A stretch of 64,000 nucleotides of DNA from Candidatus Aquidulcis sp. (lineage in GTDB: Bacteria; Chloroflexota; Anaerolineae; UBA4142), in contig DYJA01000020.1 in NCBI GenBank assembly GCA_020723345.1, positions 1-64,000 of the forward strand. Direction: 5' to 3'. The notes beneath the pieces are model-generated. The model saw only the letters and a program-made list of their open reading frames with translations, had not been told where the DNA came from and did no database searches. The position numbers were made by a program, and so were the translations under genes. Position 1 is the first letter of the stretch; each line of letters opens with the position of its first letter. Shown here one piece after another: positions 6,412 to 46,159 of this stretch.

Positions 6412-7023
6412 TTACCACTTTTTGTATCCCTCGCTCATGCCGCGATATTCAATGAACGGCTCGTTGATCAGTTTGGTTTTGAGCGCGATCTCGCATGATT
6501 CTTCGAGGGTCGAGGACCAGTGGAACGCCTCGTCGAGCGTTTGACCGATCGCGAAACTGCCGTGCCCGCGCAGCATGACGATCTTGTACTCCGCTAACGT
6601 CTTCGCCAGATTGTTCGCCATCTCCGGCGAACCCGACGCGAATTCTTCCCAGATGACGGGCACTTTTTTCAACAAGTACGACGCCTCGTTATCGATCGGA
6701 ATGATCTCGTCGCGCGAAAGCGAGAACGCGATCGCGGTGCGCGGGTGGCAGTGAACGATCGCGAGCGCCGGAGTCGTTTTGTAGATTGTGCGATGGATCA
6801 AAAGTTCCGACGACGCGAGCGCGACGCCGCTGTCGTTCTTTTCCAAACCAGTTTCAATCAAGTCGTGCGGCGCAAGCCGCCCCAGCATCGCGCCGCGCCG
6901 CTTGATGATCACGCGGTCGCCGAACCGCACGCTGAGGTTGCCGCCGTGCGAACTGACCATGTCCGCTTCAAACAAATCGCGCCCGATGTCGCGAAACATT
7001 TCGTAGACGCGTTCGTCAATCAT
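6412..7023 (-). CDS. Class II aldolase/adducin family protein, FucA-like
   Basis: Zinc-dependent aldolase of about 203 residues, close to the size of L-fuculose-1-phosphate aldolase. The conserved points are SSHGGNLSVR near residue 24-33 (phosphate binding), ASSELLIH near 70 (the catalytic acid in SSE), HCHP near 91 (zinc ligands) and RGHGSFAIG near 153 (third zinc His). It would split a ketose-1-phosphate into dihydroxyacetone phosphate and an aldehyde, L-lactaldehyde if the sugar is fuculose or rhamnulose. Its ATG overlaps the stop of the AOR gene (ATGA), so the two are translationally coupled. It is the last gene of a five-gene minus-strand unit that begins at 11003. Confidence 0.9.
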   Translation of the reverse strand: MIDERVYEMFRDIGRDLFEADMVSSHGGNLSVRFGDRVIIKRRGAMLGRLAPHDLIETGLEKNDSGVALASSELLIHRTIYKTTPALAIVHCHPRTAIAFSLSRDEIIPIDNEASYLLKKVPVIWEEFASGSPEMANNLAKTLAEYKIVMLRGHGSFAIGQTLDEAFHWSSTLEESCEIALKTKLINEPFIEYRGMSEGYKKW

Positions 7024-8828
7024 AGCGCTCCCAACTCCAATTCTTCTAGTTTCGCGCGCCGCGGCACACCGCGCTCATCCCACCCGCGCGCGCGATAATA
7101 CTCTTTCAGCATCGGTTCCAGTTGGTTGACCCAGCCCTTGCTCGGTCCATCGCTCACCGGCTCTTTGAGCAAGCGCGGCGGCAGCGTGTCATCCGCGTTC
7201 GTGAATCCCTCGCGCAGATTGTACAATCGCTCCAAGTTCCACACACGCTCCCCGACGCGAATCAAATCGCCGGTCGCGTACTTGACGCCGGTGACCGCCG
7301 AGAGCGTGCGCGCGAAATATTCTTCGGCGACGCCCAGGTTGGTGAACTTGCAGACGACGAGCGAATCAATCGCCGCGGACGCGTTCTGATGCAGAATCAC
7401 GTACGATGATTTGCCGTACACCTGGAACCGATCGATCAACTTGGGTAAGCCCAGCACTTCCAAGCCGAGCATGTTGCCGCGCATGTGACACGCGCCGCGG
7501 TTCGACGTCGCGTACAGCAAACCCTGCCCTTGCAAACCGCGCGGATCGTACGCCGGCATTTCCAAACCTTTGACGCTCATCGAAAGTTCGGGCGCGCCAT
7601 ACTTCTTCGCGAGCCGCAAACTTCCGTCGGCAAGTTCAGCGCCGAGACCGCGCCGCGCGCCCAGCGCTTCGAGCGTCGGCGCGAGCAAGTCCGCGCGTCC
7701 GAACCGCAAATCGGAATCGAGCAAACCCTTCTCGGTCAACTCCATCGCGCAGCCAAGCGTCGAGCCCGCGGAGATCGTGTCCAGACCCAGGTCGTTGCAA
7801 ATCGCGTTCGCTTCGATGATCGCCGCGAGATCGTCCACGCCGCACTGCGCGCCAAATGCCCACGTCGTTTCAAATTCTGGCCCTTCGACTCCGCCTTCGG
7901 CGCCGCTCAGGGCGCCTTCGATCTTGTCGGTCTTGCTGACGCGCGTGCAGCCGATCGGGCAAGCCCAGCACGCGGCATTCTTGACGAGATATTTTTCCGC
8001 GAGCGTCTCGCCGGAGATCGCTTCGGCGCGCTCAAATTGCGATTGTTGGAAATTGCGCGTGGGCAGCGCGCCGATATGGTTGACGATGTTCAACACGACC
8101 GCGGTGCCGAACTCGGGCAGCGCCTGACTGGTCAACGGGCTTTGGCGCAGCAGCTTGCGCGCTTCGTACAGCATAAACTTGAATTGTTCCTGATCCAACA
8201 CCTGGGGGCGCGCCGTGCCTTCGACGACGATCGCTTTCAAGTTTTTGCTGCCCATCACCGCACCGGGACCGCCGCGGGCGAGCGAACGTTCGCCGTCGTT
8301 CATGATCGCGGCGATGCGGCTCTGATTTTCGCCCGCGGGTCCAATGCAAAGCACGTTCCGTTTGTTGTTGTTCTGCCCCAGGGTTTGCGTCGTCGCGCGC
8401 ACGCGCTGTCCCCACACATGCCGCGCAGCGAGAATCTTCGCGCCCGCGTCTTTGATTTCGATGTAGACCGGCGCGGGCGCGCGCCCGCGCACGATGAGCG
8501 CGTCGTAGCCGGTCTTTTTGAATTGCATTCCCCAGTAGCCGCCCGAATTCGCGTCGAGCACCGTGCCCGTGAGCGGACTTTTCGTGCTAACCGAAAAACG
8601 ATTGCTGGTCTGATAACCGGTCGCAGTCAGCGGACCTGTCGCAAAAATCAAAACGTTCTCCGGCGAAAGCGGAGCGACGCCGGGACCAACCGCGTCCCAC
8701 AACAGGCGCGCGCCCAAACCGCGCCCACCTAAAAACAATCGTGCCGTCTCCTCGTCGAGCGGATAATTCTTGATCGCGCCCTTGCTCAAATCAATATCGA
8801 GTACTTTGCCTGCCCAACCGTGCATCAT
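7020..8828 (-). CDS. aor: Tungsten-containing aldehyde ferredoxin oxidoreductase (AOR family)
   Basis: Cytoplasmic tungstopterin enzyme that oxidises aldehydes to acids with ferredoxin. The N-terminal domain starts WAGKVLDIDLSKG, then GGRGLGARLL and NRFSVSTKSPLTG. The [4Fe-4S] ligands are CWACPIGC near residue 290 and a fourth Cys in SLVVCKFTN near residue 495. A pterin-contacting DLGLDTIS lies near 350. Length (602 residues) is normal. The start is ATG at 8828 after AAAGGATC. A MoaD-like gene precedes it by 7 bases and an aldolase gene overlaps its end. By context the natural substrate may be lactaldehyde from the deoxysugar aldolase; this is inference. Confidence 0.95.
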   Translation of the reverse strand: MMHGWAGKVLDIDLSKGAIKNYPLDEETARLFLGGRGLGARLLWDAVGPGVAPLSPENVLIFATGPLTATGYQTSNRFSVSTKSPLTGTVLDANSGGYWGMQFKKTGYDALIVRGRAPAPVYIEIKDAGAKILAARHVWGQRVRATTQTLGQNNNKRNVLCIGPAGENQSRIAAIMNDGERSLARGGPGAVMGSKNLKAIVVEGTARPQVLDQEQFKFMLYEARKLLRQSPLTSQALPEFGTAVVLNIVNHIGALPTRNFQQSQFERAEAISGETLAEKYLVKNAACWACPIGCTRVSKTDKIEGALSGAEGGVEGPEFETTWAFGAQCGVDDLAAIIEANAICNDLGLDTISAGSTLGCAMELTEKGLLDSDLRFGRADLLAPTLEALGARRGLGAELADGSLRLAKKYGAPELSMSVKGLEMPAYDPRGLQGQGLLYATSNRGACHMRGNMLGLEVLGLPKLIDRFQVYGKSSYVILHQNASAAIDSLVVCKFTNLGVAEEYFARTLSAVTGVKYATGDLIRVGERVWNLERLYNLREGFTNADDTLPPRLLKEPVSDGPSKGWVNQLEPMLKEYYRARGWDERGVPRRAKLEELELGAL

Positions 8829-8835
8829 GATCCTT

Positions 8836-9114
8836 TCAGGTTGTATTTCCGCCACTCCCAATCGGTGGAAAGATTGCGATTTCGTCGTCGGCGGTCACGC
8901 GCGTTGCGAGCCCGCGACCCAGTTCGATGGCTTGTCCGCCGATCAGGCCGCGGACGTGATCGCGCACGCGAGCGCCGTCCCAGATTACCGCGTGCAATCC
9001 TGGGTTGTCGCGGCACAGCGATGCCAAAACATCGCGCGCCGTCACGCCGTCCACGCTTATTTTAGGATCGCGCGCGCGTCGCCGCAATCCGCCGAACAGT
9101 CTTACGGTTGCCAT
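8836..9114 (-). CDS. MoaD/ThiS-family ubiquitin-like sulfur carrier
   Basis: A 92-residue beta-grasp protein that carries sulfur as a C-terminal thiocarboxylate for molybdopterin or tungstopterin synthesis. The N-terminus MATVRLFGGLRR and the end IFPPIGSGG fit MoaD. The Gly-Gly is not terminal: three residues (NTT) follow before the stop, so the protein would need trimming to be activated. It lies 7 bases upstream of the AOR gene, an arrangement seen for AOR-linked MoaD homologues, and 7 bases downstream of the mutarotase gene. Confidence 0.85.
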   Translation of the reverse strand: MATVRLFGGLRRRARDPKISVDGVTARDVLASLCRDNPGLHAVIWDGARVRDHVRGLIGGQAIELGRGLATRVTADDEIAIFPPIGSGGNTT

Positions 9115-9121
9115 TCAAACG

Positions 9122-9541
9122 TCACGGCATCACGACGCCAATCGTCAGCAAGAGATTCGCGTACACCCGTTGCTCGCCGGTGGCGATGACGAGCGCGGTG
9201 TTCGGTTCGCGCGCGGCGTCGTAGAATTCGAAACGTCCCAGCGGTTGCAGCGCGATTTCTTTCGGCAACAGTTTGCGAAACTCTGCGAAAATGGGCGGCT
9301 CGTCACCAGACGCGGGCGACATGACTTGCGCCGCTTCGATCGGGATGACGTCGACCAGCACGCGCAGCACATCGGTGACCGCGACCAATCCGGGCGCGAG
9401 GTTTAGGTATACGCGCCGGGCAGTTGGATTCGCCCCCGTGCCGAACGGGAAATTGCCGTCGGCGATCAGAATCTGGGCGCCGTGCCCCGCGCCGCCCAGC
9501 GCGGCGAGAATTTCAGGATGAAGTAGTTTGGTCTTGAGCAT
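9122..9541 (-). CDS. RbsD/FucU family sugar mutarotase
   Basis: Interconverts sugar anomers ahead of isomerase or kinase steps. The 139-residue length is typical. The signature GHGAQILIADGNFP near residue 19-32 contains the catalytic His and Asp region, and the C-terminal Y-A-N (RVYANLLL) matches the conserved sugar-binding Tyr. The start overlaps the end of the kinase gene by 29 bases, which supports co-translation. With a rhamnulokinase upstream and a FucA-like aldolase downstream, L-fucose, L-rhamnose or a related 6-deoxyhexose is the likely substrate. Confidence 0.88.
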   Translation of the reverse strand: MLKTKLLHPEILAALGGAGHGAQILIADGNFPFGTGANPTARRVYLNLAPGLVAVTDVLRVLVDVIPIEAAQVMSPASGDEPPIFAEFRKLLPKEIALQPLGRFEFYDAAREPNTALVIATGEQRVYANLLLTIGVVMP

Positions 9542-11003
9542 TTTTCATCACCTGGCTAAAGCGCGCGTACGCGTCGTCCCACGCGCCGGTCGCGCGCGGT
9601 TCGTAGGTCTCGAGCGGGAACGTCGCGCGCACGATCGCGCGCGCGTCGTCCCAGGACGCGAATTCGCCGAGCGCCAACGCTTGCGCCAGCAGGTTGCCAA
9701 TCGCCGTCGCCTCGACGGGACCCGCGTAGACCGGTCGCGCGCACGCATCCGCGGTGAATTGGCAGAGCAGTTCATTCTGCGAACCGCCGCCGACGATGTG
9801 AATCGCTTCGAGCCGATAACCCAGGATGCTTTCGAGTTGTCCCAAGGTCGCGCGATATTTCAGCGCGAGTCCTTCCAGCGCGACGCGCGCGAATGTGCCG
9901 GGGTCTTGCGGAACCGGTTGCCCGGTCGACGCGCAGAACTGCGCGATCGCTTGCGGCATGTCGTCGGGATTCAGGAACGCCGCGTGATCGGGGTCTACCA
10001 ACATCTGGAACGGCTGCGCGCGTTCGGCGAGCGCGACGATCGCATCGTACGACAGATCGTTGCCGCCGCGCGCCCACGCGCGCCGACATTCCTGAACCAA
10101 CCACAACCCGGCGATGTTTTTCAGCAGACGAAATGTGCCGCCGACTCCACCTTCGTTTGTAAAGTTGAAATCGCGCGTCGCGTCGTTGATAACCGCGTTC
10201 GGCGCGACGACGCCCATCAGCGACCACGTCCCGGAACTGATGTACGCAAAGCGCTCCGTGCGCGCGGGAACCGCCGCGACCGCCGAGCCGGTATCGTGAC
10301 ACGCGGGCGCGATGACCTGGGTCGCTTGCAGACCGGCGTGATCGGCGAACGCCGGAAGCAGCGCGCCAATCTTCGTCGTCGGCGGAATCACGCGCGGCAG
10401 AATATCGCCGGGCAGTCCCACGCGTCCCAGCATCTCTGTCGCCCAAGCGCGCTGGCGCGAATCGTAGAACTGTGTCGTCGTCGCGATCGTGAACTCACCT
10501 AGTTTTTCGCCGGTGAGCCAGTAATTGAATAGATCGGGCATCATCAAGAGCGTGCGCGCGCGCGCAAGCGCGGGCGAATCGCGCATCGCAAACAACTGAT
10601 AGAGCGTGTTCAGTTGCATGAACTGAATGCCGGTCGTCGCAAAGACCTGCGCGCGCGGCACGCAATCGAACACGCGCGCCATGACGCCGTCGGTGCGATG
10701 ATCGCGATAGTGGTACGGGTTGCCGATCAGCGCGCCGTCCCGATCGAGCAGTCCGAAATCTACGCCCCAGGTGTCCACGCCGATACTCGCGATCGCGCCG
10801 CACTGTTTCGCCGCGAGTTGAACGCCGATCAGGATTTCGTCGAACAGGCGTAGCGCGTCCCAATGCAAATGACCCGCGACGCGCACGGCGCGATTCGGAA
10901 AACGATGGACTGGCGTCAACGCCAACTGCATCCCCTCCAATTTTCCGACGACCGCGCGTCCGCTTTCCGCGCCTAAATCAATCGCGACAAAATTTTTTGG
11001 CAT
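9513..11003 (-). CDS. rhaB: Rhamnulokinase-like FGGY family kinase
   Basis: Phosphorylates a ketose, most likely L-rhamnulose (or L-fuculose), with ATP. The N-terminal FVAIDLGAESGRAVVG corresponds to the DLGASSGR motif of RhaB rather than the DxGT of xylulokinases, and GVDTWGVDFGLLD near residue 75 is the rhamnulokinase sugar-site motif. HIVGGGSQNELLCQ near residue 395 is the FGGY C-terminal signature. Length is 496 residues. The ATG at 11003 was chosen because the domain begins there; an ATG at 11030 in frame is an alternative. It is the first gene of the fucU-moaD-aor-aldolase unit. No isomerase gene is in the window. Confidence 0.9.
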   Translation of the reverse strand: MPKNFVAIDLGAESGRAVVGKLEGMQLALTPVHRFPNRAVRVAGHLHWDALRLFDEILIGVQLAAKQCGAIASIGVDTWGVDFGLLDRDGALIGNPYHYRDHRTDGVMARVFDCVPRAQVFATTGIQFMQLNTLYQLFAMRDSPALARARTLLMMPDLFNYWLTGEKLGEFTIATTTQFYDSRQRAWATEMLGRVGLPGDILPRVIPPTTKIGALLPAFADHAGLQATQVIAPACHDTGSAVAAVPARTERFAYISSGTWSLMGVVAPNAVINDATRDFNFTNEGGVGGTFRLLKNIAGLWLVQECRRAWARGGNDLSYDAIVALAERAQPFQMLVDPDHAAFLNPDDMPQAIAQFCASTGQPVPQDPGTFARVALEGLALKYRATLGQLESILGYRLEAIHIVGGGSQNELLCQFTADACARPVYAGPVEATAIGNLLAQALALGEFASWDDARAIVRATFPLETYEPRATGAWDDAYARFSQVMKNAQDQTTSS

Positions 11004-11139
11004 GGGTCTCAACTCACCATAGTTTCGCATTCATCTCGCCGCCGTTCCAAGTACAGCAGCGGCACCGGACGATCGATGAGACTGGATGTGAAAAGATTTT
11101 ATCGGAAAAAGGCGATTTTCGCAAAAAAGGATTCGCGGA

Positions 11140-11640: not shown

Positions 11641-11838
11641 ATACACGAAGGATTGGAAAAATGGGTTTCGTTGACCATTGTTCTCAATCGTGAAATTGCA
11701 AGCCGCGCGACGCGCTGGTCCCAACGCGCGCAAGTCCTGACTGCCGCTCACGGAGCGGATGCGTGCGTGATGGGTGGAATCGCGGCAGTGTACCAGCGCA
11801 TTCTGAGCCAGCCCAATTTATCTCAAAGGATTTGCTGA
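11641..11838 (+). pseudogene. ROK-family repressor, C-terminal remnant
   Basis: The frame ending at 11838 reads LTIVLNREIASRATRWSQR, then a Gly/Ala-rich segment with GADACVMGGIAAVYQRIL. This matches the last 60 or so residues of ROK transcriptional repressors (NagC/XylR type), where a G-[AN]-x-A-x-x-G-[AG] motif precedes the final helix. The DNA-binding winged helix and the sugar-kinase core are missing. It ends by overlapping the xylulokinase start by one base, the position an intact xylose repressor gene often takes. The xylulokinase gene therefore seems to have lost its neighbouring repressor. Confidence 0.65.
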
Positions 11839-13370
11839 TGCCACCCTACTTGCTTGGAATAGACATCGGAACGACCGGGGCAAAAGCGCTGTTGCTCGAT
11901 GTGGCTAATGATGTTGCGCAAGCCAGCGCCACGACGGAATACCCAACGCTCACCGCTCACCCGTTATGGGCGGAACAGAATCCGGTAGATTGGTGGGCGG
12001 CGACGGTCGCAAGCATTCGCGCGGTTCTTCGTGGCGATACCATCCAGCCCCAGCAGGTGATCGGCGTTGGACTCACGGGGCAGATGCATGGGCTGGTGTT
12101 GCTCGACAAGCAGGGTCGCGTGTTGCGTCCTTGCATCATGTGGAACGATCAACGCACCGGCGCGCAGTGCGCGGCGATCACCGAAAAAATCGGCGCGCCC
12201 AGATTACTGGAACTGATTGCGAACCCGGTGCTCCCCGGTTTCACCGCGCCGAAAATTATCTGGGTTCGCGAGAATGAGCCGAAGGTGTATGCCGAAGTTG
12301 CGCGCATCTTGTTGCCGAAAGATTACATTCGGTTTTGCCTAACCGGCGCATTCGCGACTGATGTCTCCGACGCATCAGGGACTGCGTTGTTCGACGTGCA
12401 ACACCGTCGCTGGTCGTCCGAGATGTTGGCGGCGCTGGACATCCCGAGCCAGTGGTTGCCGGAAAGTTTTGAATCGACTATTCCCAGCACCCAGATCTCG
12501 GCAGCCGCTGCAAGCGAAACCGGTCTCGTCGAAGGAACGCCCATTGTCGGCGGCGGCGGCGATCAAGTCGCGCAAGCGGTGGGTGCTGGGATCATTCGCT
12601 CGGGGATTATTTCGGCGACCCTGGGAACTTCGGGTGTGGTTTTCGCTGCGGCTGAAACATTTTTGGCTGAACCGGAGGGTCGGCTGCACACGTTTTGCCA
12701 TGCGGTGCCGGGCCAGTGGCATTGGATGGGCGTCATGCTATCGGCGGCGGGTTCGTTGCATTGGTTTCGCGATTGCTTGGCAGAAACCGAAATAGCGCGC
12801 GCGAAAGAAACGGGCGCCGATGTTTACGATTTGTTGACCGCTCGAGCAGCGCAAGCCCCCGCCGGTTCGGAAGGACTGATCTTCTTGCCATACCTCTCCG
12901 GCGAGCGTACGCCGTACAGCGATCCCGACGCGCGCGGCGTCTACTTTGGCTTGACACTCCGGCATACCAAAGCGCATTTGATCCGAGCCGTCTTGGAAGG
13001 CGTGGCGTACGGTTTGCGCGATTCGCTCGAATTGACGCGCGCGCTGGGGCTGCAAGTCACCCAACTGCGCGTTTCGGGTGGCGGCGCACGCAGCGCGCTG
13101 TGGCGTCAGATTCTCGCGGACGTGTTTGACACAGAGATCGCCTTGGTCAATGTACCGGAGGGCGCGGCGTTTGGAGCGGCGCTACTCGCCGGTGTCGGCG
13201 TTCGCGTCTATGAGGATTTGCAGGACGCGTGTGCGCGCACGGTTCGGACGATCGAACAGACAAATCCAGACGCCGACACGCAGAAGTACGCCGCCTATTA
13301 TCCAATTTATCGCGCGCTGTATCCTGCGCTGGCGCCCTTGTTCAAGCAAGTGAGCGCGTCTGTCTCTTGA
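11838..13370 (+). CDS. xylB: Xylulokinase
   Basis: FGGY kinase that phosphorylates D-xylulose to xylulose-5-phosphate for the pentose phosphate pathway. MPPYLLGIDIGTTGAK is the N-terminal phosphate motif, GLTGQMHGLVLLD near residue 75-87 carries the substrate-site sequence of xylulokinases, followed by IMWNDQRT. GGGDQVAQAVG near residue 238 and SGGGARSALWRQILAD near 412 are the second-domain motifs. The 510-residue length is normal. ATG at 11838 follows AAAGGATTTG. No xylose isomerase gene is in the window. Confidence 0.95.
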   Translation: MPPYLLGIDIGTTGAKALLLDVANDVAQASATTEYPTLTAHPLWAEQNPVDWWAATVASIRAVLRGDTIQPQQVIGVGLTGQMHGLVLLDKQGRVLRPCIMWNDQRTGAQCAAITEKIGAPRLLELIANPVLPGFTAPKIIWVRENEPKVYAEVARILLPKDYIRFCLTGAFATDVSDASGTALFDVQHRRWSSEMLAALDIPSQWLPESFESTIPSTQISAAAASETGLVEGTPIVGGGGDQVAQAVGAGIIRSGIISATLGTSGVVFAAAETFLAEPEGRLHTFCHAVPGQWHWMGVMLSAAGSLHWFRDCLAETEIARAKETGADVYDLLTARAAQAPAGSEGLIFLPYLSGERTPYSDPDARGVYFGLTLRHTKAHLIRAVLEGVAYGLRDSLELTRALGLQVTQLRVSGGGARSALWRQILADVFDTEIALVNVPEGAAFGAALLAGVGVRVYEDLQDACARTVRTIEQTNPDADTQKYAAYYPIYRALYPALAPLFKQVSASVS

Positions 13371-18584: not shown

Positions 18585-18705
18585 AAGAGGGCATCAGAAG
18601 GCACAGAGGACAAAGAAGGCAGAGACGGAGTGCGTGCCGCGCCCTCTCCGTCTTCTCCGCCTTCTTTCACTTCTCTGCCCTCTTATGCCTTCTTATCCCT
18701 TCTTC
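18567..18705. repeat. Long imperfect palindrome of GAAGG/CCTTC blocks
   Basis: About 140 bp in which a left arm rich in AGAAGGCA is mirrored by TGCCTTCT-rich sequence on the right, around a GC-rich centre. It covers the end of the first CooC gene and the start of cbiQ. Confidence 0.8.
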
Positions 18706-19463
18706 AGTTCCTCCACAATCGCGCGTGTCTCCTCCGCCAACTTCGGCGCGAGATCGTACACCGGCTTGTGTTCGCGATCCGCGCTCAGCACCGCCGGATC
18801 AGCCGAAATGAAACCGAGCACCGGCAAGCCCGGCGAATTCGCGGCGATGAAATCGCGGTCGGCTTGGCTTGCGACTTTACTGCCGACGAGATAGAAGCGC
18901 GGAATCTTGATGTCGGTCGCGAGTTGTTTGATCTGCGCGGCGGTACCGAGCGAGCGCGCGGTCGGTTCCGCGACGATGAGGAGCGCGTCCACCATATCCG
19001 ACGTCGCGCGCCCCAAGTGCTCGACTCCGGCGTACATATCCATCAGTACAACTTCGTTGCGCTGCAACAGAATCGTCGTGACGAGTTGTTTCAGCAGCAC
19101 ACTCTCCGCGCAAATGCAACCCGAGCCACCCATCTTCACCGCGCCCAGTTCGAGCAGTTTGATGCCGCGATGCGTCGCGGAAAAGCGATCCGGAATATCG
19201 TCGACGCGCGGATTCATCTTGAAAATGCTGCCGTAGGTGCCGGGCTGCGCGCCGGTACGTTCGTGGATCAATTCGTGCATTTCCGCAATTGGCGTGAGAC
19301 CCTGGATCAATTCGCGCGGGAAACCGAGCGCGTCGCCCAAGCACGGCGACGGATCGGCGTCAATCGCGAGCACGTTGTAATTTTGATTGGCGAACGTGTA
19401 TGCCAGCAAACTGGTGAGCGTCGTTTTGCCGACGCCCCCTTTGCCGGAAACCGCAAGTTTCAT
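18693..19463 (-). CDS. CooC-like nickel-insertion ATPase (copy A)
   Basis: MinD/ParA-type ATPase of the kind that loads nickel into CO dehydrogenase. The deviant Walker A is SGKGGVGKTTL at residues 6-16, with DADPS near 38, and a CxC element (GSGCICAES) near residue 130 matches the Cys pair that holds metal at the CooC dimer interface. MDMYAGVEHLGRAT near 165 is the family's switch II region. ATG at 19463 follows AGGAGA. 256 residues is a normal length. No CO dehydrogenase or acetyl-CoA synthase gene is in the window, so the client is elsewhere or different. Confidence 0.9.
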   Translation of the reverse strand: MKLAVSGKGGVGKTTLTSLLAYTFANQNYNVLAIDADPSPCLGDALGFPRELIQGLTPIAEMHELIHERTGAQPGTYGSIFKMNPRVDDIPDRFSATHRGIKLLELGAVKMGGSGCICAESVLLKQLVTTILLQRNEVVLMDMYAGVEHLGRATSDMVDALLIVAEPTARSLGTAAQIKQLATDIKIPRFYLVGSKVASQADRDFIAANSPGLPVLGFISADPAVLSADREHKPVYDLAPKLAEETRAIVEELKKG

Positions 19464-19489
19464 TGCATCTCTCCTAAAAAATATTATCG

Positions 19490-19541
19490 TCCACGAAGGA
19501 CACGAAGATTCTTCTTGGCGTTTCTTCGTGTCCTTCATGGA
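19490..19541. repeat. 18-bp inverted repeat
   Basis: TCCACGAAGGACACGAAG (19490-19507) pairs with 19524-19541 with one mismatch. It lies between the CtaG-like gene and CooC copy A, inside the operon. Confidence 0.8.
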
Positions 19542-19561
19542 AGTTTTCGTTTACCTGCTCG

Positions 19562-20305
19562 TCACGTCTCCGCGTCGGCGGTGGAGAACCAACGGAAGAA
19601 CAAAATCGTCAAGGCGAACAGATCGATGATCGCTCCGGCGTACCACATCACGAGTCCTCCGGCTTGCTGATCGCCGAGAAACGCGGGCGCGCAAATCTCG
19701 AACGCCAACGCCCGCGCGCTGTAAACCAGGTTCGGCGCGAGCGTGAAGAGCGCGCCGAGCACCGTCGTGGGAATCGATAAGAAGAAAAGATACAGCAACC
19801 GGAGCGGATGATAATTTTTCCCCCACAACGATTCGCGCTCGAACACCGGCGCCCACGCGATCAACCCGGCGCTCAGCAGGATCGATTGCTTGAGCGACCA
19901 GAAGATCGGATCGCGCGACGCGGTCTCGAACGCGATGGGCAGATGCCAGCCGAGAAAAACCGCGTTCGCGATCAGGTACGCGCGCACCGGCGATTTCAAC
20001 CAGCGCAGCGCGCGGTCGAACGCGGCGGGCAAGTGAATCAGCGACTTGGGAATGCCCAAGAGAAACAACGGCGCGGCGAGTCCGGTCAACAAAAAAAACT
20101 CGACCATGTTCGCGGTGAAACGATAATTCGCGCCGAACAATTCCGGCGAAGGAACGAATGCGACGAGCGCGGCGATCAGTCCTCCGGTGAACCAAAACAG
20201 ATGTCGCCGCTGAGCCGATGGCGTCAATCGATCCGCCCAGCGATTCATCGCGATAAAATAAGATCCCAAGACCGCGAGCGAGACGATCGATTGCCAGATC
20301 ATCAT
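19562..20305 (-). CDS. CtaG-like cytochrome c oxidase assembly protein
   Basis: A multi-helix membrane protein of 247 residues in the caa3-type CtaG family, which assists copper delivery to cytochrome c oxidase. Several segments are recognisable: RRHLFWFTGGL near residue 34, a helix with HLP in FLGWHLPIAFE near 122, and MWYAGAIIDL near the end. About seven hydrophobic helices. Its ATG overlaps the stop of the PCu(A)C gene. Together with the SCO and PCu(A)C genes upstream it forms a copper-centre assembly set. Confidence 0.85.
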   Translation of the reverse strand: MMIWQSIVSLAVLGSYFIAMNRWADRLTPSAQRRHLFWFTGGLIAALVAFVPSPELFGANYRFTANMVEFFLLTGLAAPLFLLGIPKSLIHLPAAFDRALRWLKSPVRAYLIANAVFLGWHLPIAFETASRDPIFWSLKQSILLSAGLIAWAPVFERESLWGKNYHPLRLLYLFFLSIPTTVLGALFTLAPNLVYSARALAFEICAPAFLGDQQAGGLVMWYAGAIIDLFALTILFFRWFSTADAET

Positions 20306-20778
20306 TTCGATTTCTCCAATTGAATCGGCACGTCCAGCGTCATCGCGCCGCTCTTTTCAAATCGGAGTGTCACCGCGATCTTTTTTCCAACCGCTAATTC
20401 CTGCGTCACTCCCATCAGCATAATGTGCAATCCGCCGGGTTTGAACTCAACGCGTCCTTGCGCGGGCACTTCGACGCGCGGCACCGGCACCATCTTCGCG
20501 ACATCGCCGACGCGCAGCGTCTCGTTGAGTTCCGCGCTCGCGGCGACGGGCGTGGTCGCGCCGCTCAACGCGTCCGGCGTGTTCGTCGCGTTGACGATGA
20601 CGAAATAAACCGCGCTCGACTTTTCGCCGCCCGCCATTCCGCTGTGGCTCGGCGCGCCCGCCGCCGATGGGACCGCCCACGCGTTTTCGACGCGAATCCG
20701 CGCGCTCGGCGTAACCGGCGCGCCGCAAGCCGTCGCGACGAACAGTCCCGTAATCAGAACAGACAAGACGCGATACAT
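20302..20778 (-). CDS. PCu(A)C-type copper chaperone, first copper ligand replaced
   Basis: A lipoprotein (lipobox VATAC near residue 18) with the PCu(A)C domain that delivers copper to CuA centres. The second half of the motif is intact: AKMVPVPRVEVPAQG with one Met, then GGLHIMLMG with His and Met. The first ligand, normally a His in an HET-like segment, is Asn here (ELNETLRVG near residue 86), and no other His is placed to replace it. An insertion of about 10 residues with HSGM lies earlier (near residue 45) and could compensate, which is inference. Length is 158 residues. It follows the SCO gene by 11 bases. Confidence 0.85.
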   Translation of the reverse strand: MYRVLSVLITGLFVATACGAPVTPSARIRVENAWAVPSAAGAPSHSGMAGGEKSSAVYFVIVNATNTPDALSGATTPVAASAELNETLRVGDVAKMVPVPRVEVPAQGRVEFKPGGLHIMLMGVTQELAVGKKIAVTLRFEKSGAMTLDVPIQLEKSK

Positions 20779-20789
20779 TTACATCCCCT

Positions 20790-21443
20790 TCACTCGCGCA
20801 CGAGTTGCTGAATGAGCGGCATCGCTTCGTCCACGTTGGTTTGACTGCCGGGCAACAGCGCGCGCACATTGCCTTTGCGATCGATCAGAAACAGCCGGTC
20901 GGTGTGATTGATCGAGTAATAGGCGTTCTTCAAGTTTGCTTCGTCAAACGCGCTGGGCGGCACCGGCGTTCCGTCACGATAATAGACGCGTTCGACGTAC
21001 ACCTTCAAACCGTTGACGAGAGTTTGAACTTGATCGGCAGAGCCGGTGAGCAAAACCCAGTTCGCCCAATCGATTTGGTAGATCGTACCGAACTGTTTGA
21101 GAACCGCCGGCGAGTCGCGTTCTGGATCGACTGAAAACGAAACTAACTCAACTTGATTTGACACGCCTGCGGTTTGAACGCGTTGCTGAATTTGCTTCAT
21201 CCGCGCGGTGATGAGCGGACAAATGTCCGGGCAGTTGGTGAAGATGATGCCCATCACCACAACCTTGCCGCGCGTTTGGCTCAACGGAAACGCGCGCCCG
21301 GCCTGATCGGTCAACGTCACGTCGGGCAACGCCATGTAGACCGGCAACGGCTCGACGCGCGCGATCACGATTTGAAGAATGGCGAGTATCACCGCCAGAC
21401 ACAACAGTCCGATTCCAGCCACAAGCCACATTCGTCGTGCCAT
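20790..21443 (-). CDS. SCO1/SenC-family copper assembly protein
   Basis: Thioredoxin-fold protein that inserts or reduces copper at the CuA site. One N-terminal membrane anchor (residues about 6-27) is followed by FTNCPDICP near residue 72, with the CxxxC copper ligands, and by the third ligand His in INHTDRLFLID near residue 180. All three ligands are present. Length is 217 residues. It opens the copper-assembly part (SCO, PCu(A)C, CtaG) of the metal operon and is preceded by CooC copy B. Confidence 0.92.
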   Translation of the reverse strand: MARRMWLVAGIGLLCLAVILAILQIVIARVEPLPVYMALPDVTLTDQAGRAFPLSQTRGKVVVMGIIFTNCPDICPLITARMKQIQQRVQTAGVSNQVELVSFSVDPERDSPAVLKQFGTIYQIDWANWVLLTGSADQVQTLVNGLKVYVERVYYRDGTPVPPSAFDEANLKNAYYSINHTDRLFLIDRKGNVRALLPGSQTNVDEAMPLIQQLVRE

Positions 21444-21478
21444 GCGCGTCCTCCTTCACAGCATCGTCAGAGCGAGTT

Positions 21479-22225
21479 TCACGCGACTAACTGCTGCGCG
21501 ATCTGCGCGACCGCTCGACTGATCGGCGCGTTGTCCGGCAATTCTACCAGAGGACGCCCATTGCTGTCGAATTCGACGAGTTGGGAATCGTACGGAATCG
21601 TCGCCAGAAGTGGTATGCCCATCTGATTGATCTTCTCGTCCCACGCCGCCGGCAACGCACCCGTGACGCGATTGACGACGAGGTGCGTCTGCCGAACGCT
21701 GATCTCCAATTCCTTGCTCAGCGCGAGCATCGCCTCGGCTGCCGCGAGTCCGCGCATACTCGCATCGCTGACAAGCAACAAGTGATCGACGTCGCGCGTC
21801 GTGCGGCGACTGAGATGTTCCATCCCGGCTTCGTTGTCCATAATCACACAATCGTACGACTTGCAAATGCCGTCGATGATGTTGCGGAGCAAATGGTTCG
21901 CCGCGCAATAACACCCGCGTCCTTCGGGGCGTCCCATCGCCAACAGATCAACCGCGTCGCCCTCTTCCATCGCGGTGCGAATCGCGTAATCGAGCCAGTC
22001 CTGGCGCGACATTCCCGCCGGCACATTGTCGCGCGCGTCCTCGCGAATGTCGCCGACGGTTTTAGTGAGCGACATTCCCAAGACTAAATGCAAATTGCTG
22101 CTCGGGTCGGCGTCAATCGCAAGCACCTTGCCCAAGTGATTGGTTACCCAATAGCGCGTCAGTAATCCCGATAAAGTTGTTTTGCCGGTGCCGCCTTTTC
22201 CAGCAACCGCAATTGTAGTTGTCAT
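21479..22225 (-). CDS. CooC-like nickel-insertion ATPase (copy B)
   Basis: A second CooC/AcsF-type ATPase, clearly different in sequence from copy A. The deviant Walker A is AGKGGTGKTTL near residue 8, with DADPSSNLH near 38; the CxC element is GRGCYCAANHLLR near residue 109, and MDNEAGMEHLSRRT is the switch II region. ATG at 22225 follows GGAGATTTG. It stands directly after CbiM (13-base gap). Two CooC copies with their own transporter suggest maturation of a nickel enzyme, such as CO dehydrogenase or acetyl-CoA synthase, encoded outside the window. Confidence 0.9.
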   Translation of the reverse strand: MTTTIAVAGKGGTGKTTLSGLLTRYWVTNHLGKVLAIDADPSSNLHLVLGMSLTKTVGDIREDARDNVPAGMSRQDWLDYAIRTAMEEGDAVDLLAMGRPEGRGCYCAANHLLRNIIDGICKSYDCVIMDNEAGMEHLSRRTTRDVDHLLLVSDASMRGLAAAEAMLALSKELEISVRQTHLVVNRVTGALPAAWDEKINQMGIPLLATIPYDSQLVEFDSNGRPLVELPDNAPISRAVAQIAQQLVA

Positions 22226-22238
22226 CAAATCTCCAATG

Positions 22239-23264
22239 TCACGTGGTCTGCGCGTGCCCTCGCGTCCAGCGCGCCACCAGCCAACCGATTCCCAGGATCG
22301 CAAGGAATACGATGGCGACGCCAAGCACCGCGGAAAAAATGTAGCCGAGCGTCGAATTGTTCAGCGCGGCAAGTTCATAGCCGGGCAGCGGCGCGCTCCA
22401 CAGATTCGACCAATGATCGAATCCGGCGGGAATGTAGCCGAGTCCAAGTTGTTCGAGTTCGCTGCGCCCCCATTCGCCCCACGCGGTACCGGGCGCGAGC
22501 AAGCCAATCGGCGTCAGTACGATCAGCGCGAGCAATCCAAGCCACGCCCAGCGCGAAACCCGCGCGACGCGCGCGCCGGGCTGCGCGCCGCTAAAGGTTT
22601 CGAGCAATTCGGGATTCGTCCGCTGCATCCACGCAACGACCAGTCCAGTCGCCACTGCTTCGACCGCGCCGGCAATCGTGAGATGCCCGATCAGCATCGC
22701 CGGGATCGCGACGCTCAGATCGTACGGAAAATAGATCGCGCGCCCTGCCGCGTCGCGGAACAACATCGGTTGAATGCCGAGTTCGATGCCCGTCAACAGC
22801 GCGGCGACGTTGATGCTGATGTATCCGGCAATCGCCGCCGCAACGACGCGCCGCGACGAAGTGATCGCCGCGCTGCCGCTGATCCAGCGATAGAGCAAGT
22901 ACGCGACGAACGACATCGCAATCGCCATGTTGAACACGTTCGCGCCAATCGCGAGAATACCGCCGTCGCCGAAGAACAATGCCTGGATGACGAGCGCGAC
23001 GGAAACCGCGAGCACCGCCGCCCAGGGACCCAGCACAATCGCCGCGAGCGCGGACCCGACTGCGTGTCCGGTCGTCCCGCCGGGCAGCGGCAAATTGACC
23101 ATCTGGATCACGAACGCCACCGCCGCGAAAAGCGCAATGAGCGGCACGAGCCGCCCCGTCACCAACGTTTTTATTTTTTGCGACGCGCGGTACCAAAACG
23201 GCAGCGACGCCGCGTACATTACCGCCGCCGTCGCGGGACTGAGATAACCATCGGGAATGTGCAT
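22239..23264 (-). CDS. cbiM: CbiM-type nickel/cobalt ECF substrate-binding subunit with PDGLE-like C-terminal domain
   Basis: Membrane substrate-binding subunit of the ECF transporter. It starts MHIPDGYLS, whose Met-His N-terminus coordinates the metal; this strongly supports ATG at 23264 (AGGAG upstream). LPLPGGTTGHAVGSAL near residue 62 and QALFFGDGG near 93 are conserved metal-site segments. After the seven-helix CbiM core, residues about 240-341 add two more helices (from WAWLGLL to WLVARW) corresponding to the CbiN/PDGLE-type accessory domain fused in some systems. The association with two CooC genes favours nickel over cobalt. Confidence 0.93.
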   Translation of the reverse strand: MHIPDGYLSPATAAVMYAASLPFWYRASQKIKTLVTGRLVPLIALFAAVAFVIQMVNLPLPGGTTGHAVGSALAAIVLGPWAAVLAVSVALVIQALFFGDGGILAIGANVFNMAIAMSFVAYLLYRWISGSAAITSSRRVVAAAIAGYISINVAALLTGIELGIQPMLFRDAAGRAIYFPYDLSVAIPAMLIGHLTIAGAVEAVATGLVVAWMQRTNPELLETFSGAQPGARVARVSRWAWLGLLALIVLTPIGLLAPGTAWGEWGRSELEQLGLGYIPAGFDHWSNLWSAPLPGYELAALNNSTLGYIFSAVLGVAIVFLAILGIGWLVARWTRGHAQTT

Positions 23265-23277
23265 GGCAACTCCTCTG

Positions 23278-23348
23278 AAGGATGAAAGATGAAGAATGAA
23301 TTCCACCCAATTGATTTTTTCATCCTTCATCCTTCTGCCTTCATCCTT
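23278..23348. repeat. Imperfect palindrome of GGATGAA/TTCATCC blocks
   Basis: Left arm about 23278-23302, right arm about 23315-23348. It fills the 76-base gap between the Fur-like gene and cbiM and includes the Fur stop codon; it could attenuate transcription into cbiM. Confidence 0.7.
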
Positions 23349-23766
23349 TCTTTTGGCATTTCCGGCACAGACCGAAAATCGCGAAATGGTGCAGATCGGG
23401 CGCAAAGGCGTACTCGTCGCGCAATTTCCTCTCGACGGGTGCGAACACTCCGGCATCCACCTCGATCATTTTGCCGCACTCGCGGCAGACGAGATGATGA
23501 TGATGCGGGTCGCGATGAATTTCGTACGTAACCGAGCCGGAGCCAAAATCCGTCGGATTGACGAAACCGGTCTGCACGAGCAAATTGAGCGTGCGATACA
23601 CCGCCGATTTGTTCAGGTGGGGATAACGCTTGCGGACGCGCGTGATAATTTCGTCAGCCGTGATGTGTCCATCGCACTCGCAGATCACCTGCAAGATCAT
23701 TTCGCGCTGCGGCGTCCGCCGATGTCCGCGCTGCCGCAAGTCTTTGAGAAATTCGGTGGGCTGCAT
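23341..23766 (-). CDS. Fur-family metal-responsive repressor (possibly nickel-responsive, Nur-like)
   Basis: 141 residues: a winged helix (RTPQREMILQVI near residue 17, recognition region SAVYRTLNLLVQTGFV near 55) and a C-terminal dimer domain with HHHHLVCRECGK near residue 88 and a terminal CRKC, giving two structural zinc Cys pairs plus a His-rich regulatory site. ATG at 23766 follows AGGAGA. It leads the unit that encodes CbiM, CooC, SCO, PCu(A)C, CtaG, CooC, CbiQ and CbiO. The operator found at its start site (23777-23796) resembles the published Streptomyces Nur box, so nickel sensing is the leading idea; Zur or PerR roles are not excluded. Confidence 0.92.
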   Translation of the reverse strand: MQPTEFLKDLRQRGHRRTPQREMILQVICECDGHITADEIITRVRKRYPHLNKSAVYRTLNLLVQTGFVNPTDFGSGSVTYEIHRDPHHHHLVCRECGKMIEVDAGVFAPVERKLRDEYAFAPDLHHFAIFGLCRKCQKKG

Positions 23767-44753: not shown

Positions 44754-46076
44754 CTACTGATTGATCAGCGGCAGATAGAGCCGGGGAGTTGTTTGCGGGG
44801 CGGATGAAGTATCGCGCACGAGACGCGCATAATTGTAGATGCGGACGGCATCGCCTTGAGGACCGCGCCCGGTGGAATAATCGGAAGGATTTCCAGTCTT
44901 CGGATCGCTGCGCTGCGCGCCGGCTCCATGCGCATCCGTCCATCTCCCGTTCATGTAACCCAATGCCCTGCCGAAAGCAATATACACTGCCTCGCCGGGT
45001 ATTCCCACTGGAGAACTCGCCGACCCGAACGTCGTTCCGGTCCAGTAGAAGGGATAATCCGTTTGACCGGCTTCGTTGGTAATCAAAGCGCAAGAAAACA
45101 TGGAGGCGATGGCGGCTGACCCAGTTGTAGATGGTGAGCGCGTGTAATCGACGATGCTCTGCAATTCCTTGGCATTGGGTAAACGCCAATCGCTATGACC
45201 CAGGTAGTTTGCCGCGTTCTTCGTTTGTACCCAGGCGAGCGCATCTTGCCAATTCGTCCCGGCGCCGCTGTCGGCTTTTGCCCACATCAAGCCCGTCGCA
45301 TTGTCCACGATGGTTTCGTCACCTTGGTCTACAAATTGGTTTACTCCATAGTTGGTGTTGCCGCGAACGTACAGCACGTAATATTTTTTCTGCGTACCGT
45401 TTGGGTAACCTTTGATGCGTCCGTCCGCAAAATTGACGCCAAACATCTGCCCCGTTGCGCCCACGTAGAGAGTTTGAGTGGCATATTGGGCATCGATGAG
45501 TCGTTCGCCAGCGCTGAGATCACCGTAGCCAAAGTCAAAGTAGGTCGTGTCGATAAACGGAATCGCGCCAGCGGTGGATGTGGCGTCCGGCGACGGTTCG
45601 GCTCCGCTAAACACGATCAGAGAGTAAAGTTCCTTGATGGTTGGCAATCGCCAATCGGTGTAGCCGGCGAGAGAAAATGTGGATGCGCCGCTCAGCGCAT
45701 CGCTGTAATACAGTTTGTCGCTGGAATTGATGACTCCGTCGCCGTTTCGATCCGGGCTTTTCTGCCACATCAAGCCGGTGTTCAGATCGGTGGTCGTGCC
45801 ATCGCCGTTGTTTTGGTAACGTGGTGAGTTGCCAGCCGACTGCGCGTCCTGCCCGTAAAACGCTGCGCCGGCGGAAGGGCAAGTGATTTCGCTCGCGGCG
45901 TCGTAACATTTGGTTTGCCCGGTATCTACGATGGGATAACTCGTCGCGACGGCGCGTGTGTGATGCGCTGCCGCAACGATGGGGAGATGTGTCGGCGAAA
46001 ACATATTTGCGAAAAGGATCAATCCCAGGAACAGAGCCGTCATGTGACTAGCACGGAATCGCAAATCGTGTTTCAT
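44754..46076 (-). CDS. Secreted DUF1566-type protein with two tandem domains
   Basis: 440 residues with a signal peptide (hydrophobic stretch near residue 12-35). Two DUF1566-like (Fib_succ_major/DUF1566-type) repeats follow: each has a DxxTGLMW motif (DLNTGLMWQKSPD and DNATGLMWAKADS), then YTDWRLPTIKELYSL or HSDWRLPNAKELQSI. A calcium-loop-like DRNGDGVINSSDKLY is present near residue 115. It ends with PRLYLPLINQ. It is a close paralogue of the gene at 46160. ATG at 46076 follows GGAGG. It is a cell-surface or exported protein of unknown role. Confidence 0.85.
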   Translation of the reverse strand: MKHDLRFRASHMTALFLGLILFANMFSPTHLPIVAAAHHTRAVATSYPIVDTGQTKCYDAASEITCPSAGAAFYGQDAQSAGNSPRYQNNGDGTTTDLNTGLMWQKSPDRNGDGVINSSDKLYYSDALSGASTFSLAGYTDWRLPTIKELYSLIVFSGAEPSPDATSTAGAIPFIDTTYFDFGYGDLSAGERLIDAQYATQTLYVGATGQMFGVNFADGRIKGYPNGTQKKYYVLYVRGNTNYGVNQFVDQGDETIVDNATGLMWAKADSGAGTNWQDALAWVQTKNAANYLGHSDWRLPNAKELQSIVDYTRSPSTTGSAAIASMFSCALITNEAGQTDYPFYWTGTTFGSASSPVGIPGEAVYIAFGRALGYMNGRWTDAHGAGAQRSDPKTGNPSDYSTGRGPQGDAVRIYNYARLVRDTSSAPQTTPRLYLPLINQ

Positions 46077-46111
46077 GTTGTCCTCCAAGATTGAATCTGA
46101 TTGGATATCCA

Positions 46112-46142
46112 GACTTCCGAAATCTCGCAGATTTCGGAAGTC
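46112..46142. repeat. Perfect 14-bp hairpin
   Basis: GACTTCCGAAATCT (46112-46125) and AGATTTCGGAAGTC (46129-46142) with the loop CGC, between the two DUF1566 genes. There is no T-run, so terminator action is uncertain. Confidence 0.8.
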
Positions 46143-46159
46143 GGGATGGCACACTCCAT

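What the first reader, a model, noticed from the sequence alone, without database searches (positions are those of the whole stretch)
6412..11003. Deoxysugar catabolism genes fused into one operon with a tungsten AOR and its MoaD
rhaB-like kinase, FucU-like mutarotase, MoaD-like carrier, AOR and FucA-like aldolase overlap or lie within 7 bases of each other. The aldolase would yield L-lactaldehyde, and the AOR is the only oxidoreductase in the unit. This suggests oxidation of lactaldehyde to lactate with reduced ferredoxin as product, in place of the usual NAD-linked lactaldehyde enzymes. The sugar isomerase is missing from the window.
Basis: partly seen in the sequence, partly recalled or inferred. 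Interest (0 to 1): 0.75.

Follow-up and report, generated by a model that had tools for sequence, protein, structure and literature searches.

The report
Rhamnose operon with tungsten lactaldehyde oxidase
In a group of uncultured Chloroflexota, the genes for breaking down the plant sugar L-rhamnose are tied to a tungsten enzyme that probably oxidises the toxic intermediate lactaldehyde to lactate and passes the electrons to ferredoxin instead of NAD, a step not described for this pathway in the papers searched.

Summary
The five genes are real, on the minus strand (6412-11003), and overlap or lie at most 7 nt apart. They are a rhamnulokinase-like FGGY kinase, an RbsD/FucU mutarotase, a MoaD/ThiS-like protein, a canonical single-subunit AOR and a FucA-like class II aldolase. 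The arrangement is not a one-off. In Anaerolineae, AOR orthologues (69-84% identical) are followed directly by the same aldolase in 26 of 27 uncut loci. In a 298-genome class sample both genes occur in the same 13 genomes, adjacent in all 13. Many relatives have the pathway in one locus: rhamnose isomerase (15 loci), rhamnulokinase, a RhaD-like aldolase, then AOR, aldolase and LutABC L-lactate oxidation (11 loci) or lactate racemase LarA (2). An enzyme between lactaldehyde-forming and lactate-consuming genes most simply makes lactate from lactaldehyde. The window's genome carries rhaA and LutABC on other contigs, no RhaEW, and no curated lactaldehyde reductase match. Best reading: ferredoxin-linked L-lactaldehyde oxidation in L-rhamnose catabolism; inferred, no enzyme tested. 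Open points: the aldolase's own substrate (it persists beside RhaD-like or RhaEW enzymes, with Arg at the phosphate-site position), and Thermoflexus, which has both RhaEW and the AOR. New variant of a known pathway.

The parts
9513..11003 (-). FGGY sugar kinase, rhamnulokinase-like (RhaB); ORF opens at 11030
   Evidence: Pfam FGGY_N/FGGY_C; NCBIfam TIGR02627 471 bits, below its 528 cut-off, against 123 for L-fuculokinase; homologues (48-60% id) in 13 of the related loci
9122..9541 (-). RbsD/FucU-family sugar mutarotase
   Evidence: Pfam RbsD_FucU 115 bits; sub-type unresolved, RbsD 41.9 against FucU 36.2 bits, both below cut-off
8836..9114 (-). MoaD/ThiS-like small protein (called WorX in PMC13328260), C-terminus ...GSGGNTT
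   Evidence: Pfam ThiS 29.4 bits, cut-off 22.5; homologues in 8 related loci, five ending exactly in -GG
7020..8828 (-). single-subunit aldehyde:ferredoxin oxidoreductase (Class I WOR type)
   Evidence: Pfam AFOR_N 258 and AFOR_C 480 bits; best solved relatives 9mqx and 1aor, canonical AORs; C287, C290, C294, E318, H448, C493 invariant in the orthologues
6412..7023 (-). class II aldolase, FucA-like (ALD), start codon overlapping the AOR stop
   Evidence: Aldolase_II 128 bits; PRK08660 above cut-off; predicted fold nearest to Thermus FucA 2fk5; E73, H91, H93, H154 invariant, R43 also invariant
11763..13370 (+). neighbouring xylulokinase-like gene, opposite strand; sugar-locus context, not part of the operon
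   Evidence: NCBIfam XylB 554 bits, cut-off 380; homologues 63% identical near the same operon in L011 and L012

Best explanation
This is an L-rhamnose catabolic operon in which a ferredoxin-linked tungsten AOR carries out the aldehyde-disposal step. Proposed route: the mutarotase supplies the right anomer; RhaA (elsewhere in this genome) makes L-rhamnulose; the kinase makes L-rhamnulose-1-phosphate; a class II aldolase cleaves it to DHAP and L-lactaldehyde; the AOR oxidises L-lactaldehyde to L-lactate and reduces ferredoxin; LutABC oxidises L-lactate to pyruvate. The MoaD-like protein probably serves maturation of the tungstopterin cofactor. Shown here: gene identities, gene order, its conservation, and the presence of RhaA and LutAB in the genome. 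Inferred: the AOR's substrate, product and electron acceptor, the metal, and which aldolase feeds it.
For: (1) Order in relatives: rhamnose isomerase in the locus in 15 cases (RhaA in 14, RhaI in L028), usually directly before AOR; LutABC after the aldolase in 11; LarA in 2. Several loci (L010, L013, L014, L019, L020, L023, L025) hold both the rhamnose end and the lactate end around the AOR. (2) The rhamnose label occurs across the AOR tree, including its deep branches. (3) Class sample: AOR orthologue and rhaA co-occur (8 of 13 against 56 of 285, Fisher p = 0.0016, not corrected for relatedness), and no AOR genome of that sample has RhaEW (0 of 13; within rhaA+ genomes p = 0.049). A rhamnulokinase-like gene is present in 11 of the 13. 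(4) Own genome: rhaA, LutB and LutA present plus a second LUD_dom gene where LutC is expected; no RhaEW, no FucO equivalog; its three ALDH genes are BADH-like, EutE-like and SauS-like and none passes a lactaldehyde dehydrogenase model. (5) AOR is of the canonical type, with the [4Fe-4S] cysteines and the catalytic Glu/His conserved.
Against: No assay. Characterised AORs are broad, so substrate cannot be read from sequence. The BADH-like ALDH of this genome (C15) could in principle oxidise lactaldehyde. Thermoflexus L028 has RhaEW, the NAD-linked enzyme, immediately upstream of the AOR. Five of the 13 AOR genomes have no detected rhaA, one of them a 99% complete single contig that also lacks the kinase (G213), so the AOR-aldolase pair can exist without the RhaA pathway. 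In the window's genome RhaA and LutABC are on other contigs.
Confidence: 0.72

Rival explanations
1. The AOR-aldolase pair is a separate module for another 1-phosphorylated deoxyketose (for example L-fuculose-1-phosphate), while RhaD-like or RhaEW enzymes handle L-rhamnulose-1-phosphate. The AOR still makes lactate from lactaldehyde, but mainly in the L-fucose branch.
For: ALD persists in 9 loci that also have a RhaD-like aldolase and in one with RhaEW; its nearest solved relative is annotated fuculose-1-phosphate aldolase; the mutarotase of L021 passes the L-fucose mutarotase model; a GH29 fucosidase lies beside kinase-RhaD in G118.
Against: The window's genome has no convincing L-fucose isomerase (its only Fucose_iso_C hit sits beside an AraD-like epimerase); the kinase is rhamnulokinase-like; the isomerases found at the AOR are rhamnose isomerases.
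Confidence: 0.15
2. The pair handles a different aldehyde: the aldolase cleaves 5-deoxyribulose-1-phosphate or a relative (radical-SAM by-product salvage) and the AOR oxidises acetaldehyde, with the rhamnose genes as frequent neighbours only.
For: FucA-like aldolases serve this salvage pathway in other bacteria (PMC6079011); some carriers lack rhaA; the invariant Arg at position 43 hints at a changed substrate site.
Against: No MtnA-like isomerase or MTR kinase was recognised among the recurrent neighbours, which are rhamnose and lactate genes; acetaldehyde would not call for LutABC or LarA.
Confidence: 0.07
3. The AOR is a general detoxifying enzyme for aldehydes, placed in the operon to protect against leaked lactaldehyde, with the main flux going elsewhere (RhaEW, an ALDH or a reductase).
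For: Physiological role proposed for several characterised Class I WORs (PMC13328260); L028 carries RhaEW next to the AOR.
Against: No RhaEW and no curated lactaldehyde reductase match in the window's genome; tight coupling to an aldolase and recurrent LutABC point to a flux-carrying step.
Confidence: 0.06

Closest known systems
L-rhamnose pathway with RhaEW (Chloroflexus aurantiacus, Bacillus subtilis; PMC3870299)
   Same: Isomerase, kinase and class II aldolase giving DHAP and L-lactate, in Chloroflexota; lactate oxidation genes join the regulon in some lineages
   Different: There lactaldehyde is oxidised by the NAD-dependent domain of RhaEW; here a separate AOR stands in its place (no RhaEW in the window's genome or the 13 sampled AOR genomes), with Thermoflexus L028 holding both
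Pyrococcus furiosus AOR and Clostridium autoethanogenum AOR (Class I WOR, clade 87; 1aor, 9g7j)
   Same: Single-subunit AOR with the same cluster cysteines and catalytic residues; MoaD/ThiS-like WorX beside some Class I enzymes
   Different: Those act in peptide/aldehyde detoxification or acetate reduction; none is reported in a deoxysugar pathway in the papers searched
GAPOR of P. furiosus and GOR of Caldicellulosiruptor
   Same: A tungsten enzyme replaces an NAD-linked dehydrogenase in a sugar pathway and yields reduced ferredoxin
   Different: Different clades and substrate (glyceraldehyde-3-phosphate)
Escherichia coli FucA/RhaD and Thermus FucA (2fk5)
   Same: Fold, metal-binding histidines and catalytic Glu of the aldolase
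   Different: Invariant KRRG in place of the T/S-G phosphate-site motif; next to the AOR in nearly all Chloroflexota loci seen

Membership tests
Canonical aldehyde:ferredoxin oxidoreductase (Class I WOR) | Both AFOR domains over cut-off | tested here: met
   AFOR_N 257.8 and AFOR_C 479.5 bits
Canonical aldehyde:ferredoxin oxidoreductase (Class I WOR) | [4Fe-4S] cysteines and catalytic Glu/His of PfAOR (C288, C291, C295, C494, E313, H448) | tested here: met
   C287, C290, C294, C493, E315/E318 and H448 line up and are invariant; roles of the residues are from memory of the PfAOR literature
Canonical aldehyde:ferredoxin oxidoreductase (Class I WOR) | Large subunit alone, no WorS/WorN/bifurcating subunits beside it | tested here: met
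   No such gene in the window operon; none among the recurrent neighbours of orthologues
Canonical aldehyde:ferredoxin oxidoreductase (Class I WOR) | Tungsten content and ferredoxin as acceptor | not testable with these tools
   needs purified protein
L-rhamnose catabolic operon (isomerase-kinase-aldolase type) | L-rhamnose isomerase | tested here: met
   RhaA at G000:C100, over the TIGR01748 cut-off; in the same locus in 14 relatives, RhaI in one more
L-rhamnose catabolic operon (isomerase-kinase-aldolase type) | Rhamnulokinase | tested here: inconclusive
   best model TIGR02627, 471 bits, below its 528 cut-off
L-rhamnose catabolic operon (isomerase-kinase-aldolase type) | Rhamnulose-1-phosphate aldolase | tested here: inconclusive
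   no RhaD-like gene in the window's genome; FucA-like ALD is the candidate; 9 relatives have a RhaD-like gene
L-rhamnose catabolic operon (isomerase-kinase-aldolase type) | NAD-linked RhaEW or FucO-type lactaldehyde reductase (the usual last step) | tested here: not met
   no RhaEW and no TIGR02638 match in the window's genome or the 13 AOR genomes
L-fuculose-1-phosphate aldolase (FucA) | Metal-binding histidines and catalytic Glu | tested here: met
   H91, H93, H154, E73 invariant; roles from memory of the E. coli FucA structure
L-fuculose-1-phosphate aldolase (FucA) | Phosphate-site T/S-G motif | tested here: not met
   KRRG invariant in all 15 aligned ALD, where Thermus FucA has TKSG
L-fuculose-1-phosphate aldolase (FucA) | TIGR01086 equivalog score | tested here: not met
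   43 bits, cut-off 400
MoaD/ThiS sulfur carrier | C-terminal Gly-Gly | tested here: inconclusive
   GG present but followed by NTT in the window; five of the eight homologues end exactly in GG

The most novel reading that the evidence does not exclude
The AOR and its coupled aldolase form an obligate two-enzyme module, with an aldolase of changed phosphate site, that hands a toxic 2-hydroxyaldehyde straight to a tungsten enzyme: a dedicated sugar-catabolic WOR whose ferredoxin electrons raise the energy yield of deoxysugar growth in Anaerolineae.
Probability: 0.2. Interest if true: 0.8.

Novelty: new variant of a known kind. Interest (0 to 1): 0.64.

Why it matters
By a 2026 review only five of 92 WOR clades have a defined physiological role (PMC13328260). 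This context gives one AOR lineage a concrete, testable substrate, L-lactaldehyde, and adds a ferredoxin-linked branch to rhamnose catabolism beside the NAD-linked RhaEW and propanediol routes. If true, deoxysugar growth of these Anaerolineae would depend on tungsten and would yield low-potential electrons usable for H2 or ion pumping.

Tried and rejected
L-fucose as the main sugar of the window's genome: no convincing FucI; the only Fucose_iso_C hit is beside an AraD-like gene. Replacement of AOR by RhaEW or FucO in this genome: neither found. Deoxyribose salvage (DrdAIK): no matching kinase/isomerase seen at the loci. Chance neighbourhood: excluded by conservation. A strict 'AOR excludes RhaEW' rule: refuted by Thermoflexus L028, and the statistic is weak (p = 0.049 within rhaA+ genomes, p = 0.14 overall). 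AlphaFold2 model of the AOR: too poor to use (mean pLDDT 47). Literature: no paper in the open library was found that joins AOR with lactaldehyde or rhamnulose catabolism; subscription papers were not searchable.
Full report
Observation. Five genes on the minus strand, 11003-6412, overlap or lie at most 7 nt apart: FGGY kinase, RbsD/FucU mutarotase, MoaD/ThiS-like protein, AOR and class II aldolase (ALD). Pfam confirms each family above its cut-off. In NCBIfam the kinase is nearest to rhamnulokinase (471 bits, cut-off 528) and far from L-fuculokinase (123); the aldolase passes PRK08660; the mutarotase cannot be assigned between RbsD and FucU.

The AOR. It is a single large subunit with no partner gene. 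Its nearest solved relatives are canonical AORs (9mqx, 1aor, 9g7j; 580-601 bits), well ahead of FOR (331) and WOR5 (223). The cysteines and the Glu/His pair that line up with PfAOR are invariant in the orthologues. Together with the MoaD/ThiS-like neighbour this fits the Class I WOR with WorX of the recent classification (PMC13328260). The genome holds 15 places of this family, so an AOR as such is not unusual here; what matters is which operon it sits in.

Conservation. A scan of one genome per species returned 28 Chloroflexota loci at 69-84% identity and one distant archaeal hit. ALD follows the AOR directly in 26 of the 27 uncut loci, often with a 4-nt overlap; the exception is L027. In a second draw of 298 genomes of the class (some genomes are shared with the first set), AOR orthologues of 70% or more and ALD orthologues of 63% or more occur in the same 13 genomes and are adjacent in all 13. 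Distances in the two proteins correlate (Mantel r = 0.90), as expected for genes inherited together.

What surrounds the pair. Clustering of neighbouring proteins and family scans show L-rhamnose isomerase in 14 loci, usually directly before the AOR; rhamnulokinase-like kinase in 13; a RhaD-like aldolase (158 bits, cut-off 170) in 9; MoaD-like in 8; and LutA-LutB-LutC after ALD in 11 (LutB over its cut-off; L019 is cut off after LutB). A Thermoflexus locus reads RhaI-RhaEW-AOR-ALD-LarA, and L037 has LarA after ALD; both LarA pass the lactate racemase cut-off. So the genes before the AOR make L-lactaldehyde and those after it use lactate. This ordering is the strongest evidence for the substrate and product. 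On the AOR tree the rhamnose context appears across the clade, deep branches included, which suggests it is ancestral; loci without it (the Anaerolinea thermolimosa group) look derived, but the tree does not prove this.

The window's genome. RhaA is on contig C100 (over its cut-off), beginning 157 bases from the contig end. LutB and LutA are on C18, with a second LUD_dom gene beside them where LutC is expected. There are three class II aldolases: ALD, an AraD-like epimerase on C81 and an unassigned one on C60; the search would have found a RhaD-like gene, since a relative's scores well with the same model. There is no RhaEW and no curated lactaldehyde reductase match. Three ALDH-family genes exist: BADH-like, EutE-like and SauS-like. 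The BADH-like one cannot be excluded as a lactaldehyde dehydrogenase. The genome is estimated 95.5% complete, so absences are provisional.

Profile statistics. AOR orthologues associate with rhaA (8 of 13 against 56 of 285, Fisher p = 0.0016). None of the 13 has RhaEW, whereas 20 of 64 rhaA genomes do (p = 0.049 within rhaA genomes; p = 0.14 over all genomes). Neither test corrects for shared ancestry. Thermoflexus L028, outside the sample, has both RhaEW and AOR, so the two are not strictly exclusive. Another 36 rhaA genomes have neither; how they dispose of lactaldehyde is unknown.

The aldolase puzzle. ALD has the metal-binding histidines and catalytic Glu of FucA and its predicted fold is nearest to Thermus FucA (model confidence moderate, mean pLDDT 74). 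But the T/S-G phosphate-site motif is replaced by an invariant KRRG, and ALD stays with the AOR even where a RhaD-like aldolase or RhaEW is present. Either ALD serves a second sugar phosphate that also yields lactaldehyde or a related aldehyde, or it works with the AOR in some other way. In the window's genome it is the best candidate for the rhamnulose-1-phosphate step.

Mechanism proposed. Rhamnose is isomerised, phosphorylated and cleaved to DHAP and L-lactaldehyde; the AOR oxidises L-lactaldehyde to L-lactate and reduces ferredoxin; LutABC takes L-lactate to pyruvate. Gene content and order are shown; substrate, metal, acceptor and flux are inferred. Aldehyde oxidation has a low enough potential to reduce ferredoxin (general knowledge of AORs).

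Relation to what is known. Chloroflexus uses RhaEW, an aldolase fused to an NAD-linked lactaldehyde dehydrogenase (PMC3870299). In the searchable open literature no paper was found that links an AOR to rhamnulose or lactaldehyde catabolism; one paper on Anaerolineaceae assigns AORs to amino-acid-derived aldehydes (PMC5481317). Replacement of an NAD enzyme by a tungsten enzyme in a sugar pathway has precedent in GAPOR and GOR (PMC13328260). I therefore file this as a new variant of a known kind.

Noticed in passing
window 8836-9114: The MoaD-like protein ends GSGGNTT, three residues past the Gly-Gly; L015, L017 and L021 also have tails while L020, L023, L031, L033 and L034 end exactly in GG, so some may need trimming or may not act as sulfur carriers.
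   Followed up: partly
L096:8589-9020 (G292:C128): A 143-aa ORF joins the AOR N-terminus in frame to the aldolase C-terminus, a deletion remnant or assembly chimera of a second AOR-aldolase copy.
   Followed up: partly
L028:4640-11986: Thermoflexus locus with RhaI, RhaEW, AOR, aldolase and lactate racemase LarA in a row: both the NAD-linked and the ferredoxin-linked lactaldehyde enzyme together.
   Followed up: partly
L098:2748-6588 (G118:C42): Rhamnulokinase-like and RhaD-like genes next to a GH29 alpha-L-fucosidase in a genome without detected rhaA.
   Followed up: partly
G000 (whole genome): Fifteen AOR-family places in a 6.3 Mb genome, a large set of tungsten-type oxidoreductases.
   Followed up: no
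298 class genomes: 36 of 64 rhaA-bearing genomes of the class have neither RhaEW nor this AOR; their lactaldehyde step is unassigned.
   Followed up: no
L095:6728-8814 and G294:C159: More distant homologues of the aldolase (53-57%) lie beside a glycerol kinase gene in two genomes, without the AOR, still with the KRRG motif in L095.
   Followed up: partly
window 18693-23456: Two MinD/ParA-like (CbiA-domain) ATPases near a CbiM-type cobalt/nickel transporter gene.
   Followed up: no
window 44754-47959: Two tandem, similar proteins with Lcl C-terminal domains, one carrying a DUF5666 domain.
   Followed up: no
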